The notes beneath the pieces are model-generated. The model did not search any database. It saw nothing but the letters and a program-made list of their open reading frames with translations, and was not told the origin of the DNA. The translations under genes and the position numbers were made by a program. Shown one piece after another: positions 50,182 through 63,503 of a stretch of DNA of 64,000 nt. This DNA is from a virus. The stretch is from the IMG/VR virus record IMGVR_UViG_3300029957_000008, positions 1 to 64,000 of that record; one strand, given 5' to 3'. How positions within the stretch are numbered: position 1 is the first letter of the stretch; each line of letters begins with the position of its first letter.

Positions 50182-52365
50182 ATGCTGTGCCCCAACATTA
50201 AAGATTCCAAGGGAATGCTCATCGATGGAGTTTTTTCATCGGAGGCCATCGACTCTTCAGGAGAAGTTGTAAAACTTGAAGGTATTGATATCTCCTCTAT
50301 GGAAGAGGGGCACGGGGTTGCCAATTACGAGCACAAGGGAATAGACGCTGGAGGCTTTGGCCGGGAGATCGTAGGAAGGATCATCTACGTCCACAAGGTT
50401 TTTAAGGCTTCGGACTGCGAAGATGACCGCCAAAGGATGTTTTGGAAGAAAGTCAAGGAGCAGCCCTTTCTCTACGGTATGGTCCGGCTTTACGATGCTG
50501 CGGGCCACACCGGAGCAGAGGCCCTAGCGGCCCAAATCCGGGATGCTGTCTACCACGATGATGAAATTACGGTTAGGTACTCCGTAGAGGGTACAACCCT
50601 TGAGCGGGATGGAAACATCATTAAGACCTCCATCGCTAGGAAGGTTGCTCTAATCATTGGCCCCTGCAATAAGACCTGTCTATCCGGTGTGGTTAAAGAC
50701 ACCAACGCCCCTAAGGGATACCAAAAAGAGGACATCGAGAAGTCTGAATTATTGTCCGATCCTTCAAGCCGAAGCATCGGTGACGCCCCAGAGTACCAGT
50801 ACAACCCAATCGTGTCGGATTTTACCAAGAACCCGCTTATTGATCTGGTCCAGAGCTTAGAGCTACTAAAGAGCATGACGGCGGGTGGTGGAGACGCAGC
50901 CCCTTCTACTCTTACTGGCGGCCAAGCTCTACAAAGGGAAGAGCTAGGTGGCGTCTACAAGAACCACATCGTTGACGCCATCAAGGACTACAAAGACCCT
51001 TGGGACCACGGTAAGTTTCGAAAGTTTCTAAAAGCTCGGTTGGACAAAGCTGACCTTCCTGAGGTTTCTGACTCGTTCTTGGACTACTTCATGGGGATCG
51101 CCAAGGACTACCAGATTAAGAAGCATCAGGACATTAACCAGGAGTACATTACTAATACTTCGCTGGTTGGCCAAGTCCATCAGTTAGAAGGATATCTGGT
51201 TGAGCTGAGGAAGTCCATCAGAGACGAGCTAGAGGGGTACCAAGTTAGCCTTCCTGAGGTTTACGCCGTCAAGATGAAGGTGGGTAATGATTACCTACCC
51301 GCTGGTCGGTTCATGGTGGTTCAAAACGCAGTCCACCACCTAGAAGACTACCATGGGATCCTAGCAGCTATGATTCCCGAAGGGCCTTTGGGTGTAGACG
51401 GCCAGACTGGAATAGAAGCCCTCAAGATGGTCCCCGAGTTCTCGGTTACCGAGCATCAGATTCCTGAGCCGGTAGCCAATACAGTACCTGGTATTGTTGG
51501 GGTGGTTTCCAACAAGCTTCAAGCCCCACAAAGGGCCGCTGTTTTTGAATATATTCGGCCCGGTATGGGGCAGTCCCATATTGTTGAGTTTAGTGAGCAT
51601 GGCGCAGCCCTGGATGGTGAAAAGCTGACAGATGATGAGCTGAATCTCATTGTCTCCAATGTTGAAAGCGGTTTGGCTACTCTCAAGTGGAAGCAGAATA
51701 GCAACCAGGACTTGAGTAAGTCTGACATGGGCGTGCATGAGGCTATGGCTGGTTTAAGAGCGGCCGTATCGGCCGGACATGTGCATCCTGATGTCGAAAG
51801 GGCGTTTACCAAGCACGTCTTTGAGGACCACATGGTTCCTGGGGTGGGTAATAAGTTCGCTTGGAATGAATTTCAACGACAGAACAAGCCAGGAGTACTT
51901 GGGTCTATTGATCTTAACTCTTTTAAGCACATTAACGATACTCGCGGCCATATTGCCGGCGATAGCGCGATCAAGGCCGTTGGTGGGGCACTGAAGAGTG
52001 CTGCTGAGAAGGTTGGGACAGTAAAGCTGTTTAGGACTGGTGGAGACGAGTTTGCCATTCACAGCCCTACTCAAGAAGATGCTCATAGGTTTATGAGAGA
52101 AGCAAGGTCTCACATGGCTCAAATACCGCCAGTTGGCGGGGTACATAAGCCATCGTTCAGTATCGGCTTGGGCCAGGACTTTGGGACGGCAGACAAGGCT
52201 TTGTATCTAGCCAAGAAGCAAAAGGTCGATCCTGTGACGGGTAAGAACGCCTATCACCCTGCCAGAACTCCTCACTTGGGGCACTCTTTGCTGCCAGGAT
52301 CGGAAGGGCCGATCAATATGTCTGAAGCACCTACGGCTTCGACTGGGTCAAAGGTAGCGGCGTAG
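50182..52365 (+). CDS. prohead-protease-like protein fused to a GGDEF domain
   Basis: A 727-residue protein. Residues 1-190 resemble phage prohead proteases: DSSGEVVKLEG, VANYEHKG (candidate His), FLYGMVRLYDAAGH, TVRYSVEGT (candidate Ser) and IIGPCNKTC. A helical and beta middle follows. Residues about 560-685 form a GGDEF domain with all core elements: SIDLNSFKHINDTRGHIAGD, RTGGDEFAI near 619, and SIGLGQDFGTADKALYLAKK (seen in pieces). By family knowledge such a domain makes cyclic di-GMP. Position before scaffold and capsid genes fits the protease role. The fusion is unusual. Confidence 0.7.
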   Translation: MLCPNIKDSKGMLIDGVFSSEAIDSSGEVVKLEGIDISSMEEGHGVANYEHKGIDAGGFGREIVGRIIYVHKVFKASDCEDDRQRMFWKKVKEQPFLYGMVRLYDAAGHTGAEALAAQIRDAVYHDDEITVRYSVEGTTLERDGNIIKTSIARKVALIIGPCNKTCLSGVVKDTNAPKGYQKEDIEKSELLSDPSSRSIGDAPEYQYNPIVSDFTKNPLIDLVQSLELLKSMTAGGGDAAPSTLTGGQALQREELGGVYKNHIVDAIKDYKDPWDHGKFRKFLKARLDKADLPEVSDSFLDYFMGIAKDYQIKKHQDINQEYITNTSLVGQVHQLEGYLVELRKSIRDELEGYQVSLPEVYAVKMKVGNDYLPAGRFMVVQNAVHHLEDYHGILAAMIPEGPLGVDGQTGIEALKMVPEFSVTEHQIPEPVANTVPGIVGVVSNKLQAPQRAAVFEYIRPGMGQSHIVEFSEHGAALDGEKLTDDELNLIVSNVESGLATLKWKQNSNQDLSKSDMGVHEAMAGLRAAVSAGHVHPDVERAFTKHVFEDHMVPGVGNKFAWNEFQRQNKPGVLGSIDLNSFKHINDTRGHIAGDSAIKAVGGALKSAAEKVGTVKLFRTGGDEFAIHSPTQEDAHRFMREARSHMAQIPPVGGVHKPSFSIGLGQDFGTADKALYLAKKQKVDPVTGKNAYHPARTPHLGHSLLPGSEGPINMSEAPTASTGSKVAA

Positions 52366-54235: not shown

Positions 54236-55651
54236 ATGAATCCATTGTCGCAAATTCAAGACCTCGTAAAGGCACTAGAGGCCGGCAACTATGATGCCGC
54301 CCCCAGCACACTAGAGCAAGGCTCTGCCCTGCAGATTGAAGACCTCAATCCTGTCATGGTCATGGTCACAGCAGAAGAAAAACACATTAAGCTCCAGAAG
54401 CTGATTCCTGTTGAGTCGTCTAAGTCGACGACTTTTCAGTTCAACCGTCAGCTCTCGGTTGGTATCATGGGTGGCAGCGCTCAGATGGAAGGTAACGTTG
54501 GTCAAGAGGAAACTTCTGACTACGTACGTATCACCATCCCAATGACGTACTACTCGCACATTCGTCGGGTGACTGTTGCTTCGACCTTGGTTGCCAGCTC
54601 TGATGGTAAGAAGTCAGATGAACGGGCGGCTCAGGATGCGGCTAAGAAAGTCTCCTTTGACGTTGAGTTCGACCTCTTCCGTGGTCTTGAGTGTTTCAGC
54701 AACGCCGGTACTTTCGACGGCAACCCGCTGACCACCTCGAACCTTCTCCCCAACATGCATGGCCTTTCGCTCCAGGTTCGTCAGTCGGACTTCCAGGTGA
54801 ACAGCCGTGATGCAATGTTCGCCGAGTTCGGTTCGGATCAGACGGTTGTTCTTTCAGCCGGTGGTTCGACTCTAACCCAGGGTATCATTGAAGACGGCGC
54901 TCTCCGTAGCTCTTTGGGCTTCGGCGAAGCGGACAAGCTCATTGTGGATCCCGTGGTTCTCGCTAACTACAACAAGATCACGTTCGGCAAAGAGCGTATC
55001 ATCCTCGCGGGTAGCCCGCAAGATGCGACTGCCGGTGACCTTCGTCGTCAGTGGGTCTCGGGCGGCACTGTGAACATTGAAGCTTCGCAGTTCCTCCGTG
55101 GCAAGTTCAAGCCCGCTCCTGTGCGTGCGAACAGCCCCGTGGCTCCTGCTAGCATCACTGTGACCCCGGCTTCGGCCACCAACCCGACCGGCCTCGCCGC
55201 TGGTGTTTATTACTACTTCGCTACCGCTGGTAACGAAGTTGGTGAGTCGGTTGCTTGTACGGCAGTGTCTTCGGGCAGCGTGACGAAGGACTACAAGGTT
55301 ACGGTTGTGGTTACCCAGCCCGCGTCTGGCGTCTACCGCTTCTACAACATCTACCGTTCGCCTGTCGGCGGTACGGCAGCTCAGGCCAAGTTCATTGGTC
55401 GCGTTGTTCCGACCCAGGGCTCGTCCACGACTAACTTCGTTGACCTCAACGGCATGAATCCTGCAGCGGTTACTGGTTACTTCCTTCAGAAGGACGGAGC
55501 CAGCATTCGTGAACTGGCTTCTTACAGCCGCCTCAAGCTGGCCGTCTCGGACCTCAGCATGCCGGAAGCTCACTTCCGCTTCCTGGGCCTAGCGGTTGAG
55601 ACTCCTCGCAAGTTCGTCCTCATCGACAACTTGAATGGTACCATCAGCTAA
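54236..55651 (+). CDS. major capsid protein with Ig/FN3-like insertion
   Basis: A 471-residue protein following the scaffold. Capsid-like elements: helical N-arm, FQFNRQLSVGIMGGSA, TIPMTYYSHIRRVTVAST, DVEFDLFRGLECF, and the closing FRFLGLAVETPRKF. Between about residues 295 and 400 lies a fibronectin/Ig-like beta sandwich (AGVYYYFATAGNEVGES, YRFYNIYRSPVGG) probably exposed on the capsid surface. The gene ends with a hairpin terminator, as expected for a highly made product. Confidence 0.78.
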   Translation: MNPLSQIQDLVKALEAGNYDAAPSTLEQGSALQIEDLNPVMVMVTAEEKHIKLQKLIPVESSKSTTFQFNRQLSVGIMGGSAQMEGNVGQEETSDYVRITIPMTYYSHIRRVTVASTLVASSDGKKSDERAAQDAAKKVSFDVEFDLFRGLECFSNAGTFDGNPLTTSNLLPNMHGLSLQVRQSDFQVNSRDAMFAEFGSDQTVVLSAGGSTLTQGIIEDGALRSSLGFGEADKLIVDPVVLANYNKITFGKERIILAGSPQDATAGDLRRQWVSGGTVNIEASQFLRGKFKPAPVRANSPVAPASITVTPASATNPTGLAAGVYYYFATAGNEVGESVACTAVSSGSVTKDYKVTVVVTQPASGVYRFYNIYRSPVGGTAAQAKFIGRVVPTQGSSTTNFVDLNGMNPAAVTGYFLQKDGASIRELASYSRLKLAVSDLSMPEAHFRFLGLAVETPRKFVLIDNLNGTIS

Positions 55652-58175: not shown

Positions 58176-61100
58176 ATGGATCAAGACACCAAACCCAAGG
58201 AGTTTTCTGTCGTCATCATTTCTGATGGCCAAGGGAAAGTTCTGTTTGGCAAGCGAAACGACAATAAGAAGTGGACGTTGGCTGCAGGCGGCCTTAATCC
58301 GGGCGAAACGCCCGAAGAAGGAGCCTTAAGAGAAATGTTCGAGGAGACAGGGTTAAGACCGAAGAAGCTGTCCTTTGTAACGACAAAAAAGACTCCCAAC
58401 AATACAGTCCACTTCTTCTCATGTCAATGCCCCGGTGAGCCTACTACCGAAAACGATCCCGACAAGGAATGCTCCAAGCTTCAATGGGTTGATGTTCGTG
58501 GTGGAGTCCCTTCCAACATATGGAACAACCTCCATGGTCCAAAGGGCGATGAAAACATCGTAAGACAAGTCTACGACCTCAAGAAGTCGGAGCAAGTTTG
58601 GCTAGAGGATTGTGGATTCCTAGACCTATCTAAGTCAGAAAACGAGTCAGAGGTTTCGACACTTCTAAGGCACCCAAATCCCTCTGAACGATCTCTAGCC
58701 CTTAAGCTCAACACCGTCACACCTCACGATCTAGCCGTGGCTATCCTAGATCCAGATCCTAAGGTCTGGGGAACGGCGTTTGACCACAAAGATGCTACCC
58801 ACGCTCACACAATTCTCTCTTCTAATACTAGGGATGCTGCGGGAAACCCTCTTTGGGAACGACACAACCTGCTACTAAAAGACCCCAGGTTCAATAAAGA
58901 GCATCTTACGCTCATGGCTCATGCCGTCCGCAAAGACTCCTCGTTATCCCCTAAAGACCAAGCTGACAGACTTAAGGTCTTGGCCCTCAATGGGTACTCG
59001 GATCTCAAGAAGTCTTCTGCGTGGGCACATCATCTGTTATACGCAGGTTCCACCCAAGGACAAGATCTTGCCGACTCAAGTGCCGAACCTGTTCACGAGA
59101 CCCTAAAGCCTCTCAAACACGAGTATGAATCGGCTCTATCGTCTGAGGACGCTATTGAGCCGCACAACGCTGGTTTGCATGACATTGGCCAGGTGTCTCA
59201 TAAGGTGGTCTACAAGGTTGGATCTAACAAGCTCATGGTGAAGCCCTATGCCGAAGAAGAACAGCCTTTGTCTGGTTGGTCTGAAGGGGCTTCTCAAGCT
59301 ATCTACCATGCCGCCGGTTTGGGACACCTACATCAAAGGTCCTTTGTGTCCCATCACGGCGGTGGGAAGTACAACATTCCGGCTACTGTGATTCATTTGG
59401 ATGCTGAGGCAACGCCTATCCATAAGGCTCCCTTAGGGACAGTCAGGGAGCAGAATCCGGCTTTGGATGACGAAGCCAGGAAGATGTCTGTGATGGACTT
59501 CCTTACGGCGAACCACGACCGGCACACCAACAACCTCATGGTCCAAAAGAACGGCCATTTGTTGGCCGTGGATAACGCCAGTGCGTTTGGAAGCCACCCG
59601 TACACATTTCCTTACTACACCAATAAGGGTGTAAGCGTAGTTCTTGGAAAAAATCATGACATGCTGCCTGAAGGGAAGCAGGCCTATACACGGCTATTAG
59701 CCGATTGGTGGCCTGGGATTAGTACGGATGTGAAGTCTGAGCTGAATAAGCGGGTCGCCCAGATTAAGCACCCGGCTCACAGTCGGAGAATCAAGGAGGC
59801 CTTTGACCAAAGGGCTGCTTGGCTAGACCGAAAGTCTCAGGAAGCCAAAGCTGGAAATGTTAGTGGGTTTGATGACTTTGCTCCTGCTCCGTTAGAGAAA
59901 AGGATGGAGGAAGCCGAGTTTCTTGGCGATCACCCTAAGATGAAAATCGAAGGGTTGCACGAGAATCTTTTGGACAAGCACCCGGCGTCAATGAACGCCG
60001 ACGTAGAGCACTTTGAGAAGAACGTCAATACCTCTAAGCACAATGTACGCCCTTTGAAGGAGAAGCTCAAGGGGGCCGACATGAAGGCTGTTTACGGCCA
60101 TGCGGATAAGAAGTACTTGGTTAAGCCGTCTGTTTTCAATAATGAAGAGCTGACCCACCTCAATACGCCACTTTCTGCCTGGTCAGAGCTTACACACCAG
60201 GCGATGTACCACGCTGGTGGTATCGGACACCTACACCAGAAGGTTCATGCCACTGTTGCCAAGAATGTGTTTCCTGATGCTCATGGGCTCGTAGTCCACA
60301 TGGAGCCAGGAGCCAAGGAAGTCCGGGAGCTTAATGATAAGGAGAAGACTGCGCTAACCAACCATCCTGACTTCAAGAAGATCCCCTTTATGGACTTTGT
60401 GACTTTTAACAAGGACCGTCACGAAGGAAATCTGATGGTTAAGCCTGACGGTACTCCGCTTGCGATTGACCACAGTCTTGTTTTTGGGAAAGACGCCGAC
60501 TCCAAGTTCTCCTTAGAGAACCAAGATCTGCATTATGAAGAGCCGGGGTATGGATTCAGAACGCCTATGCAGACTGCGTCCAAACCGGATGCTAGCACTT
60601 GGGCTTGGTGGGACGCAAACAAAGACAAGATCAAAGAGTCTTTCCACAAGCACGCGGACCTTATTCCTCACAAAGAGACCCGGAACAGACTAAAAGACTC
60701 GTTCAACTACAGAATGGACATGCTGGAAGATGGCGCTACGCCCATGGGCCAGCCAATTAGGGAAGGCCTACATAAGACACTTGAAGGTGCTGACTTCCTT
60801 CATAAACAGCACGATCAGCCGTCTTTAATCAAGCCCATCAACGTTGCTGGCGTCCATGACAAGCTCAAGGTCTCTACTCCTGACGCCATAAAGATTCACA
60901 GGCAGAAGTTTGAGCTTGGGTTAAATCAGCACCCAACTGTGGCTAAGCCTGTAATGAGCTACGATCCTTCGGTCAAGCGAACACTTGCAGGTGAAGAACC
61001 TAAGGCTATCTACAAGATGGGCAATGACCACGTAATGGTTAAACCCCAGGCCGCTCCAACATCAAGGCTTTCGGCCTGGAACGAAATGACTTCCCAGGCG

Positions 61101-61955
61101 ATGTACCACGCTGGAGGTATTGGGCATCTACACCAGAAGGTTCACGCAACAACTTTGGCCAATCAGGGGGGTAAGACTGTTCTTGGCAAGGACCCCCACG
61201 CAATCGTGGTGCACATGGCGCCTAACGTCCGACCCGTTTCGGAGGCATTGAAGGACGATCAAGATACCAGCTTAGACAGCATGGCCAGCAATCCAGAACA
61301 CCTACAGTCTCTCAAGAAAATCGGGGTTATGGACTGGTTGACATCGAATCCTGATAGGCATGAGGGGAATATTATGATTGCTCCCGATGGGTCTCCCTTG
61401 GCTATCGATCACGGTCGAGCTTTTTCAAGCGATAGAGTTCACGCTTTTGGTGGTGAGTATGATCGTGATTTGGAGGCTCAAGGTCGAATTGCTTTGGCCG
61501 GACACCTCAATCACCCCGACATGCCTAAGGCGACCAGTCAAATTATGGAAAGTGTTGGGAAGCAAAAGGCTTGGGACGAAGCTGTGAACAAAGACCCTCA
61601 CAAGCAGTTGGATGGGTTTGACAATTTTAGTGGGTATGGTGGTGGAGACTTTTTCTCCGACGCCACCAAAATGGGCGGATCCCCAGATGAGGAAACCTGG
61701 AACTGGTTTGACGCAAACAAAGATAAAATGCATGAGGCTTTTAGGAAGCACGCTAACATGCTCCCCGACCAAGACGCCCGAAACAAAATGATGGGGTCGT
61801 TTAATGTCAGGATGGAACACCTAAAGCAAGTTCGAGAGAATAGCCGAGGTAAGGATCCTAACAAGTTAGATGTTCAAAACCACTCACCCGTAGCTTATCG
61901 GCCTACGGCCCCAAGCATGGTTGAATCTCATCCAACGGAAAGAAGGGTAGCCTAA
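58176..61955 (+). CDS. Nudix hydrolase fused to three kinase-like domains
   Basis: A 1259-residue protein starting on the base after the connector stop. Residues 1-150: Nudix domain with a perfect box G-x5-E-x7-REUxEExGU at 38-60, for hydrolysis of nucleoside diphosphate-linked compounds. Then three related modules with catalytic-loop motifs NHDRHTNNLM (near 446), NKDRHEGNLM (near 746) and NPDRHEGNIM (near 1059), each followed by LA(V/I)D-N/H metal motif and preceded by a lysine strand (LMVKP, YLVKP, VMVKP) and a shared HAAGLGHLHQ/HAGGIGHLHQ block. This resembles HipA/PI-kinase-type folds. The virion location is inferred. Confidence 0.72.
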   Translation: MDQDTKPKEFSVVIISDGQGKVLFGKRNDNKKWTLAAGGLNPGETPEEGALREMFEETGLRPKKLSFVTTKKTPNNTVHFFSCQCPGEPTTENDPDKECSKLQWVDVRGGVPSNIWNNLHGPKGDENIVRQVYDLKKSEQVWLEDCGFLDLSKSENESEVSTLLRHPNPSERSLALKLNTVTPHDLAVAILDPDPKVWGTAFDHKDATHAHTILSSNTRDAAGNPLWERHNLLLKDPRFNKEHLTLMAHAVRKDSSLSPKDQADRLKVLALNGYSDLKKSSAWAHHLLYAGSTQGQDLADSSAEPVHETLKPLKHEYESALSSEDAIEPHNAGLHDIGQVSHKVVYKVGSNKLMVKPYAEEEQPLSGWSEGASQAIYHAAGLGHLHQRSFVSHHGGGKYNIPATVIHLDAEATPIHKAPLGTVREQNPALDDEARKMSVMDFLTANHDRHTNNLMVQKNGHLLAVDNASAFGSHPYTFPYYTNKGVSVVLGKNHDMLPEGKQAYTRLLADWWPGISTDVKSELNKRVAQIKHPAHSRRIKEAFDQRAAWLDRKSQEAKAGNVSGFDDFAPAPLEKRMEEAEFLGDHPKMKIEGLHENLLDKHPASMNADVEHFEKNVNTSKHNVRPLKEKLKGADMKAVYGHADKKYLVKPSVFNNEELTHLNTPLSAWSELTHQAMYHAGGIGHLHQKVHATVAKNVFPDAHGLVVHMEPGAKEVRELNDKEKTALTNHPDFKKIPFMDFVTFNKDRHEGNLMVKPDGTPLAIDHSLVFGKDADSKFSLENQDLHYEEPGYGFRTPMQTASKPDASTWAWWDANKDKIKESFHKHADLIPHKETRNRLKDSFNYRMDMLEDGATPMGQPIREGLHKTLEGADFLHKQHDQPSLIKPINVAGVHDKLKVSTPDAIKIHRQKFELGLNQHPTVAKPVMSYDPSVKRTLAGEEPKAIYKMGNDHVMVKPQAAPTSRLSAWNEMTSQAMYHAGGIGHLHQKVHATTLANQGGKTVLGKDPHAIVVHMAPNVRPVSEALKDDQDTSLDSMASNPEHLQSLKKIGVMDWLTSNPDRHEGNIMIAPDGSPLAIDHGRAFSSDRVHAFGGEYDRDLEAQGRIALAGHLNHPDMPKATSQIMESVGKQKAWDEAVNKDPHKQLDGFDNFSGYGGGDFFSDATKMGGSPDEETWNWFDANKDKMHEAFRKHANMLPDQDARNKMMGSFNVRMEHLKQVRENSRGKDPNKLDVQNHSPVAYRPTAPSMVESHPTERRVA

Positions 61956-61958
61956 GTG

Positions 61959-61987
61959 TTGACTTTTTGTAACGGTATTGATATAGT
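61959..61987 (+). promoter_or_regulatory. sigma70-type promoter
   Basis: TTGACT (61959-61964), 17-base spacer, TATAGT (61982-61987), eight bases before ATG 61996 with AGGA in between. Confidence 0.55.
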
Positions 61988-61995
61988 AGGACAAA

Positions 61996-62181
61996 ATGAC
62001 TATTAAGGTCTATCACGCATCGAATAACTCAACCAAAAGCTACTCCGGGAGCCCTGAACAGGTTCTTGAGCAGTTGATGGCTACCTATACGTTCCTCAAG
62101 CGCTATCCAACCCATTCCTTGGCTTGCGCGTTGAAGAACCTAGGTCGGCAGCAGAATTACTTCGTTGAGATCGAGGAATAG
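61996..62181 (+). CDS. 61-residue stand-alone copy of the next protein's N-terminal domain
   Basis: The product (MTIKVYHASNNSTKSYSG start, QQNYFVEIEE end) aligns over its whole length with residues 1-62 of the following kinase-like protein (VTVHNHFNDQKQVYEG ... LSAVISS): same beta hairpin, YPTH/YGSD turn and final strand. It shares one base with that gene. Function unknown; probably arose by duplication and may compete or assemble with it. Confidence 0.65.
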   Translation: MTIKVYHASNNSTKSYSGSPEQVLEQLMATYTFLKRYPTHSLACALKNLGRQQNYFVEIEE

Positions 62182-63503
62182 TGCAAGTCACAGTCCACAA
62201 CCACTTCAACGACCAGAAGCAGGTCTACGAAGGCACCGAACAGGATGTTCGATTTGAAATCTTTAATGATTTCCCGTATTTACTATCTAAATACGGTTCG
62301 GACGCCAATGTAGATCTTCTAGTTAAGGACCTTGATCGTTCCCAGAACCTTTCTGCCGTGATTTCTTCAATCACCCTAGCAAAAACCGAGGTAGAGCTAC
62401 CTCAAACTCCTGAAGCTCAGTTCTTCCCCAAGGACCAGTATCTAGAACTGGTAAGGGAAGCCGCAGAGTTCCTGTCTGGCATTCCATGTGACAAAGAAAT
62501 GCTACGCAGGACTCTCCAGGAGAACGATGGCGACGAGAAGGTTGCTTGTCTGGTATCTGTAGGTCTGGAGCCCTCTGAAGCCAACCTAGCGGCCCTAAGG
62601 GCCGTAATGAACGTTAGGTTAGCCAAGTCTGAAGAAGAGCCAATTGTCTTTAGTAAAGTTGAGGCTTTTAGTGATTCTGGCACAGATTTTGCCGAGATGA
62701 TTAAAAGGGCCGTTACGGCCCAAACTATTAAGGAAATTCAATTCAAGGCCGGCAAGCATTCCAAGGGAACACTCCTAGCCAAGGACCCAGAGACCTTCAC
62801 GCAGTTACTATTAAAGCCAGGAGCTGGCAAGCAAAATCCTGCACTTGGAGAAAGCCAAGTTCAAGCGTCCCAGAGCGTCCGGGAAGCGGCGTTTTACGCC
62901 GTAGCGGACGCATGGGGACTGGCCAAAGACCTGCCAGAGTGCAAGCTGCTGTATATTGACGATCAAGAGTATGCGGCTATGCAGTTTCTACCCCAGAAGT
63001 GGGTTAACGGCAACGATCTAAGGCGACAGGATCCCAATGCAGCCAGAAGATACCTGAGCCCCTACTTGATTCAGGGAGATGTCCATCGTTGGGCTGTATT
63101 AGACTATATTTTGGCCAATCCGGACAGGAACGCTGGAAATATCATGTTCCGGGATGGCCATATCAAGCTGATTGACCATGGGTCGGCTTTGGCCGGGATC
63201 GACTTCAGTCCAGCTATTGACAACCACGCCTTTGTTCCTTACTACCTAAGAGTTTTTGCTTCTGGCGGTTTTGGCAAGATGGAGCCAGAGCAACGTCTGA
63301 AGGCGCTACCTCGACTGAATTCTGAGGGCGAAAAGAAGCTGGCCGAGTGGATTGGTAGGCTCAACAAGGAAGTCGTACAAAAGATTCTAATTCCCTACGG
63401 GATCGATCCCACTCCTGAATTGGCTAGGTTGGAACTGTTGAAATTTGCGTGCAGTGTCCAGTCGGCCGATTTGGCTGTGTTAAGTGTGTGGACGATAGGA
63501 TAG
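62181..63503 (+). CDS. kinase-like virion-region protein
   Basis: A 440-residue protein, GTG start overlapping the previous stop. N-terminal 62-residue domain duplicated from the neighbour, a helical linker, then a kinase-like domain: lysine strand QLLLKPGAG (near 217), helix with REAAFYAVADAWGL, catalytic loop ILANPDRNAGNIMF near 313 and metal site IKLIDHGSALAG. It is a relative of the modules in the 58176 protein. Substrate unknown; a host protein or lipid is possible. Confidence 0.62.
   Translation: MQVTVHNHFNDQKQVYEGTEQDVRFEIFNDFPYLLSKYGSDANVDLLVKDLDRSQNLSAVISSITLAKTEVELPQTPEAQFFPKDQYLELVREAAEFLSGIPCDKEMLRRTLQENDGDEKVACLVSVGLEPSEANLAALRAVMNVRLAKSEEEPIVFSKVEAFSDSGTDFAEMIKRAVTAQTIKEIQFKAGKHSKGTLLAKDPETFTQLLLKPGAGKQNPALGESQVQASQSVREAAFYAVADAWGLAKDLPECKLLYIDDQEYAAMQFLPQKWVNGNDLRRQDPNAARRYLSPYLIQGDVHRWAVLDYILANPDRNAGNIMFRDGHIKLIDHGSALAGIDFSPAIDNHAFVPYYLRVFASGGFGKMEPEQRLKALPRLNSEGEKKLAEWIGRLNKEVVQKILIPYGIDPTPELARLELLKFACSVQSADLAVLSVWTIG

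What the first reader, a model, noticed from the sequence alone, without database searches (positions are those of the whole stretch)
58176..61955. Giant Nudix-triple-kinase-like fusion directly after the head connector
Seen: a textbook Nudix box at residues 38-60, then three repeats each with a lysine strand, a GLGHLHQ/GIGHLHQ block, a D-R-H-x-x-N catalytic loop and a D-N/H metal motif, about 300 residues apart. Known: D-R-H-x-x-N loops occur in HipA and PI-kinase-type enzymes. No phage protein with this order is known to me. The gene abuts the connector gene, so it is made with virion proteins. It may modify several host targets or be an internal head protein.
Basis: partly seen in the sequence, partly recalled or inferred. 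Interest (0 to 1): 0.85.

Follow-up and report, generated by a model that had tools for sequence, protein, structure and literature searches.

The report
Phage Nudix enzyme with three kinases
A large tailed virus related to a Myxococcus phage carries, among its head and tail genes, one long protein that joins a Nudix hydrolase to three apparently intact PI4-kinase-like enzymes; it is probably loaded into the virus and injected to chemically alter the bacterium, a known strategy carried out here with a little-described kind of enzyme.

Summary
ORF 58176-61955 (+, 1259 aa) has an intact Nudix domain (residues 10-107, E 3e-19) and three kinase modules (316-580, 609-885, 905-1236) that match Pfam PI3_PI4_kinase (E 1e-26). 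Module 1 folds with confidence (pTM 0.85), and the best full-module match listed from the PDB is PI4-kinase II-alpha (TM 0.60). In 21 related modules the beta-3 Lys, the alpha-C Glu, the Arg, His and Asn of DRHxxN and the metal Asp never vary.

This is a conserved phage locus: capsid, upstream gene, Nudix protein with 0-3 kinase modules, then the fourth kinase. The Nudix-kinase pair was found in 20 IMG/VR contigs and, without the three modules, in the isolate Myxococcus phage Mx1. One contig has the same Nudix plus three-kinase protein (55% identity), and the modules are orthologous by position. In relatives the slot carries ART-PolyVal, PBECR5 and GNAT domains, typical of 'polyvalent' injected phage effectors.

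Best reading: a polyvalent, probably virion-packaged effector whose variable part is an array of PI4K-II-type kinases. HipA membership is not supported. Packaging and substrates are inferred, not shown.

The parts
58176..61955 (+). Gene for the 1259-aa Nudix plus three-kinase polyvalent-type protein
   Evidence: full-length homologue at 55% identity in L013
58203..58496 (+). Nudix hydrolase domain (residues 10-107), with a Nudix box intact here and in all 18 other distinct Nudix sequences compared
58596..59120 (+). Linker region (residues about 141-315), repeat-like by eye; the related Nudix protein in L027 has sub-threshold HEAT/LRV hits
   Evidence: sequence reading; (L027); no Pfam hit in this part of the protein itself
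59121..59915 (+). Kinase module 1 (KA1, residues 316-580), PI4K-II-like fold; DRHTNN loop, VDN metal motif
60000..60830 (+). Kinase module 2 (KA2, residues 609-885); DRHEGN, IDH
60888..61883 (+). Kinase module 3 (KA3, residues 905-1236); DRHEGN, IDH
61996..62181 (+). Small ORF (61 aa): stand-alone copy of the N-terminal domain (ND) of the next gene; its stop codon overlaps the GTG start of that gene
62181..63503 (+). Fourth kinase gene (KB, 440 aa): ND domain plus PI4K/CtkA-like kinase; the recurrent partner gene of the locus, also in phage Mx1
57318..58175 (+).
54236..55651 (+). Major capsid protein (PHROG 752), 51-75% identical in the syntenic relatives

Best explanation
The gene encodes a polyvalent-type phage effector. 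It is made late with the virion proteins, is probably packaged in the virion, and is probably delivered with the DNA. Its Nudix domain would hydrolyse a nucleoside-diphosphate-X compound (ADP-ribose, an NAD- or NpnN-type compound, or capped RNA). Its three PI4K-II-type kinase modules would transfer phosphate from ATP to host molecules, most likely proteins, each module to its own target. The downstream kinase gene 62181-63503 is its recurrent partner. Shown here: domains, intact active sites, predicted kinase fold, conserved locus, module orthology, and swapping with ART, PBECR and GNAT domains. Inferred: packaging, injection, kinase activity, protein rather than lipid substrates, and the Nudix substrate.
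For: Nudix and 3x PI3_PI4_kinase in one ORF. K41, E55, R134, H135, N138 and D151 are invariant in 21 modules and D133 is present in 20 of 21; in the partner family K, E, D, N and D are invariant in 16 of 16. AF2 module pTM 0.85; PI3K/PI4K are the top Foldseek matches, and PI4KII-alpha with ADP has TM 0.60 over the module. The partner kinase matches PI4KII-alpha and H. pylori CtkA. Location among capsid, baseplate and sheath genes of a myovirus. Conserved capsid - upstream gene - Nudix - kinase order in IMG/VR contigs and in isolate Mx1. The same slot carries ART-PolyVal and GNAT in Mx1, and PBECR5 or GNAT in L014, L018 and L020; ART and PBECR are named classes of polyvalent-protein domains (PMC5512222). 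The three modules are orthologous one to one with those of L013, modules 1 and 3 also with L014, as expected for non-redundant roles. Nudix proteins fused to or near head genes were proposed as packaged (PMC9503650).
Against: No packaging signal, protease site or proteomics was available. This protein itself lacks the commonest polyvalent domains (metallopeptidase, ART, ParB). The known polyvalent kinases are described as a different family, with the C-terminal subdomain lost (PMC5512222). No enzymatic data were found for any member, and lipid or small-molecule substrates cannot be excluded.
Confidence: 0.6

Rival explanations
1. The kinases act inside the infected cell late in infection on the phage's own head or tail proteins (assembly or maturation), and the protein is not an injected effector.
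For: Late-gene location and adjacency to structural genes; the partner kinase gene follows the same upstream gene in most loci examined.
Against: The Nudix domain and the swapping with ART, PBECR and GNAT domains in relatives fit conflict effectors better than assembly enzymes; module number varies from 0 to 3 while capsid proteins stay 51-75% identical.
Confidence: 0.18
2. It is a late-made cytoplasmic anti-defence or superinfection factor that is never packaged; Nudix removes a defence nucleotide signal and the kinases silence host defence proteins.
For: Nudix box intact in all 19 distinct sequences compared; the related phages also carry mCpol and GGDEF nucleotide-cyclase domains, suggesting nucleotide-signal conflict.
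Against: Anti-defence factors usually have to act early (general knowledge), and this gene sits in the late virion block.
Confidence: 0.12
3. The modules are lipid or small-molecule kinases, for example acting on inositol lipids of the host membrane.
For: The closest solved full-module fold is the lipid kinase PI4KII-alpha; the Pfam family is PI3_PI4_kinase.
Against: Pfam also scores Fam20C, a protein kinase, over its cut-off, and the PI3/PI4K fold also serves protein kinases (ATM appears); TM 0.60 does not decide substrate.
Confidence: 0.1

Closest known systems
Myxococcus phage Mx1 WNM70333.1 ('NUDIX hydrolase', 1479 aa) and WNM70334.1 ('kinase', 619 aa)
   Same: Same gene slot and order (capsid, upstream gene, Nudix protein, kinase); Nudix domain 42% identical; downstream kinase orthologous (37.5% identity over 75% of the query)
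   Different: Mx1's protein carries GNAT and ART-PolyVal domains before its Nudix domain (residues 919-1056) and has no KA modules
Polyvalent proteins of phages and conjugative elements (Iyer et al. 2017, PMC5512222)
   Same: Multidomain, unrelated enzymatic activities in one chain, late virion-gene context, domain swapping; relatives in the same slot carry ART-PolyVal and PBECR5
   Different: Published polyvalent kinases are Ser/Thr/Tyr-type with a lost C-terminal subdomain; HipA, phosphatidylinositol and Fam20 do not occur in that paper's main text. Arrays of PI4K-type modules were not found described there
PI4-kinase type II / PI3K superfamily (PF00454)
   Same: Predicted fold, DRHxxN loop, metal Asp, beta-3 Lys
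   Different: Sequence match is confined to the catalytic loop (E 3e-4 for the alignment against PI4KA); no lipid-binding features tested
IMG/VR 3300048581_000063 (L013), 1224-aa protein
   Same: Same Nudix-KA-KA-KA order at 55% identity; same neighbours
   Different: Three stand-alone ND genes instead of one before the partner kinase
Phage proteins in BFVD with a similar kinase fold (A0A6J5L3S4 'Nudix_Hydrolase domain', A0A6J5S481 'portal protein', Mycobacterium phage Onyinye 'ADP-ribosyltransferase')
   Same: Kinase fold of the same kind in proteins named for Nudix, portal or ART domains
   Different: 17-19% sequence identity; their domain order was not examined here

Membership tests
Nudix hydrolase | Nudix box GX5EX7REUXEEXGU in a Nudix domain | tested here: met
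   Exact box at residues 38-60; PF00293 E 3.2e-19
PI3/PI4-kinase superfamily (PF00454) | Match over the curated family cut-off | tested here: met
   94.7 bits against 27.1, three stretches
PI3/PI4-kinase superfamily (PF00454) | Kinase fold with catalytic Lys, DRHxxN and metal Asp | tested here: met
   AF2 pTM 0.85; PI4KII-alpha TM 0.60; residues conserved in 21 modules.
PI3/PI4-kinase superfamily (PF00454) | Lipid kinase activity | not testable with these tools
   needs enzymology
HipA family | HipA Pfam domains or HipA as closest fold | tested here: not met
   No HipA Pfam hit at E<=1; no HipA among the 50 best PDB fold matches listed
Fam20C kinases | Fam20C C-terminal kinase domain | tested here: inconclusive
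   41.3 bits against cut-off 26.8, but only about 40 residues of the catalytic loop match; FAM20A weak, E 0.0017
SCO1664 family (TIGR03843) | Score over the curated cut-off | tested here: not met
   57.9 bits against 172.4
Phage polyvalent protein | Two or more unrelated enzymatic domains in one chain | tested here: met
   Nudix plus three kinases
Phage polyvalent protein | Encoded among late virion genes | tested here: met
Phage polyvalent protein | Contains signature domains (metallopeptidase, ART, ParB, PBECR) | tested here: inconclusive
   No such Pfam hit in this protein; ART-PolyVal and PBECR5 present in syntenic relatives
Phage polyvalent protein | Packaged in the virion and injected | not testable with these tools
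   needs virion proteomics and a translocation assay

The most novel reading that the evidence does not exclude
A lineage of large myoviruses related to Myxococcus phage Mx1 delivers an array of up to four PI4K-type kinases, each with its own target, together with a Nudix hydrolase, as a multi-kinase host-takeover payload at the moment of DNA entry. This would be a previously unreported class of injected phage kinases.
Probability: 0.35. Interest if true: 0.75.

Novelty: new variant of a known kind. Interest (0 to 1): 0.55.

Why it matters
Known phage protein kinases are few (T7 gp0.7 is the textbook case, own knowledge). Here a conserved locus predicts one to four PI4K-type kinases per phage next to the capsid genes, with a culturable isolate (Mx1) in which the partner kinase and the Nudix protein can be tested directly. 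If packaged, it adds a kinase class to the polyvalent effectors and makes their early targets accessible to phosphoproteomics.

Tried and rejected
HipA origin: no Pfam support and not among the listed fold matches. KA relatives in bacterial genomes: 37 pattern matches, none a relative. The partner kinase gave one hit there, a contig binned as Saccharibacteria (L031) that carries the same upstream-gene, Nudix and kinase order, so probably a phage contig. KA modules in isolated phages by tblastn: none at E<=0.01. A kinase-like reading of the C-terminal part of the mCpol gene (genome 76435-78525) was suggested by eye and got no support from profile comparison (hhalign probability 0.7-1.8%). A decayed-kinase reading was rejected because active-site residues are conserved throughout. 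Literature searches for PI3K/PI4K-type phage head kinases and for Mx1 found nothing on point; the library lacks most subscription papers.

Full report
WHAT IS THERE. The window lies in a 91,976-base virus record. The record has a tail sheath gene, hence a myovirus, with baseplate, portal, terminase and capsid genes. ORF 58176-61955 (+) is open for 1259 codons and starts directly at the stop of the upstream gene (TAA then ATG), so translational coupling is likely. Residues 10-107 are a Nudix domain (PF00293, E 3.2e-19) with an exact Nudix box at 38-60. Three stretches match PI3_PI4_kinase (E 1.1e-26 together, 94.7 bits against a cut-off of 27.1), and Fam20C also scores over its cut-off through the same catalytic loop. 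The three modules are 32-38% identical to one another.

The next gene, 62181-63503, is a fourth kinase of the same superfamily (PF00454 32.2 bits; hhalign 98.6% with the modules). Between the two genes a 61-aa ORF (61996-62181) is a stand-alone copy of that kinase's N-terminal domain, and its stop overlaps the GTG start of the kinase.

ARE THE ENZYMES INTACT? In 21 modules from this phage and nine related contigs, the beta-3 Lys (K41), alpha-C Glu (E55), Arg and His of the loop, Asn138 and Asp151 are invariant, and the catalytic Asp133 is present in 20 of 21. In 16 downstream kinases K212, E235, D315, N320 and D332 are invariant. The Nudix box is intact in all 19 distinct Nudix sequences. AlphaFold2 gives module 1 with pLDDT 83.7 and pTM 0.85. 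Foldseek's best matches are PI3K and PI4K structures; by TM-score the best full-module match listed is PI4KII-alpha with ADP (TM 0.60). The downstream kinase (pLDDT 87.1, pTM 0.65) matches PI4KII-alpha and the H. pylori kinase CtkA. TM 0.60 supports the fold, not the substrate.

THE LOCUS IS CONSERVED. Scans of the viral contigs (one search added no new contig) and domain calls on the fetched DNA show the order capsid - upstream gene - Nudix protein - kinase. The Nudix protein has 0, 1, 2 or 3 KA modules; in some contigs (L024, L026, L030, L041) the last kinase is fused to it. Of 29 kinase loci examined (20 of them IMG/VR contigs) have the Nudix domain in the same or a neighbouring gene, and two of those without it (L043, L048) hold under 2 kb of upstream DNA. 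The isolate Myxococcus phage Mx1 has the order too, annotated 'NUDIX hydrolase' and 'kinase'. L013 has the same Nudix-KA-KA-KA protein (55% identity over 1255 columns). In the tree, modules 1, 2 and 3 of the window pair with modules 1, 2 and 3 of L013 with strong support, and modules 1 and 3 also group with modules 1 and 3 of L014 (the module 3 grouping with L014 has only 90/82). The triplication is thus older than the split of the window phage and L013, probably also of L014, and each copy has been kept.

WHAT KIND OF PROTEIN. Relatives in the same slot carry ART-PolyVal and GNAT (Mx1), PBECR5 (L014, L020) or GNAT (L018) next to the same Nudix domain. These are domains that Iyer et al. 2017 list for polyvalent proteins, large multidomain proteins of late gene clusters thought to be packaged and injected (PMC5512222). 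The same group proposed that phage Nudix proteins near or fused to head genes are packaged (PMC9503650). The kinases that paper describes are of another kind, and its main text does not mention HipA, phosphatidylinositol or Fam20. BFVD holds phage proteins with this kinase fold named for Nudix, portal or ART domains, so the theme is wider than this lineage, though I found no paper on it.

MECHANISM AND LIMITS. I think it most likely that the protein is packaged and injected, that the kinases phosphorylate host proteins, and that the Nudix domain removes a nucleotide signal or changes an NDP-X pool. Intact active sites, predicted fold, locus and domain swapping are shown; packaging, activity and targets are inferred. 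The upstream 'connector' matches only PHROG 772 'tail fiber protein', so that name is not confirmed. The kinases are filed with the PI3/PI4-kinase superfamily by sequence and fold, not with HipA.

VERDICT. A real and well conserved enzyme array, a new variant of a known kind (polyvalent phage effectors), with an isolate in which the Nudix protein and partner kinase can be tested.

Noticed in passing
genome G000:76435-78525 (L011:14435-16525), outside the window: A 696-aa gene with an N-terminal mCpol domain (minimal CRISPR polymerase, PF18182, E 1.9e-11) plus DUF5661. An mCpol match occurs in 17 of 19 related phage records including Mx1 (14 over the cut-off; Mx1 weak, E 4e-6). In Panoptes mCpol is a bacterial anti-phage cyclase (PMC12657230, PMC12657218); the passages I searched did not mention phage-encoded copies. 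A conserved phage mCpol could be a decoy or counter-signal maker and deserves its own look.
   Followed up: partly
61996-62181; L013:12723-13299: Stand-alone copies of the about 62-aa N-terminal domain of the kinase gene: one here, three in tandem in L013, one each in L014 and L020. No other copy in this phage's record. Predicted beta-beta-alpha-alpha-alpha-beta. Function unknown; perhaps a targeting or regulatory domain.
   Followed up: partly
50182-52365: 727-aa protein with a weak head-maturation-protease match at its N-terminus and a GGDEF nucleotide-cyclase domain at its C-terminus, next to the capsid genes. Mx1 has the parts as separate genes, 'prohead protease' and 'nucleotide cyclase'.
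   Followed up: partly
L010:830-4549 (Mx1 WNM70322.1): The Mx1 'putative prohead protease' ORF holds a weak PI3/4-kinase match near its C-terminus (E 2e-4). Large ORFs in G012, G013 and G016 away from the main locus have stronger ones.
   Followed up: no
61959-61987: Promoter-like TTGACT-17-TATAGT with extended TG directly after the stop of the Nudix-kinase gene; promoter-like sites in the region are about as many as in shuffles.
   Followed up: no
L031 (CALMSM010000143.1): A contig binned as a Candidatus Saccharibacteria MAG carries the phage order upstream gene - Nudix - kinase, so it is probably a phage contig.
   Followed up: partly
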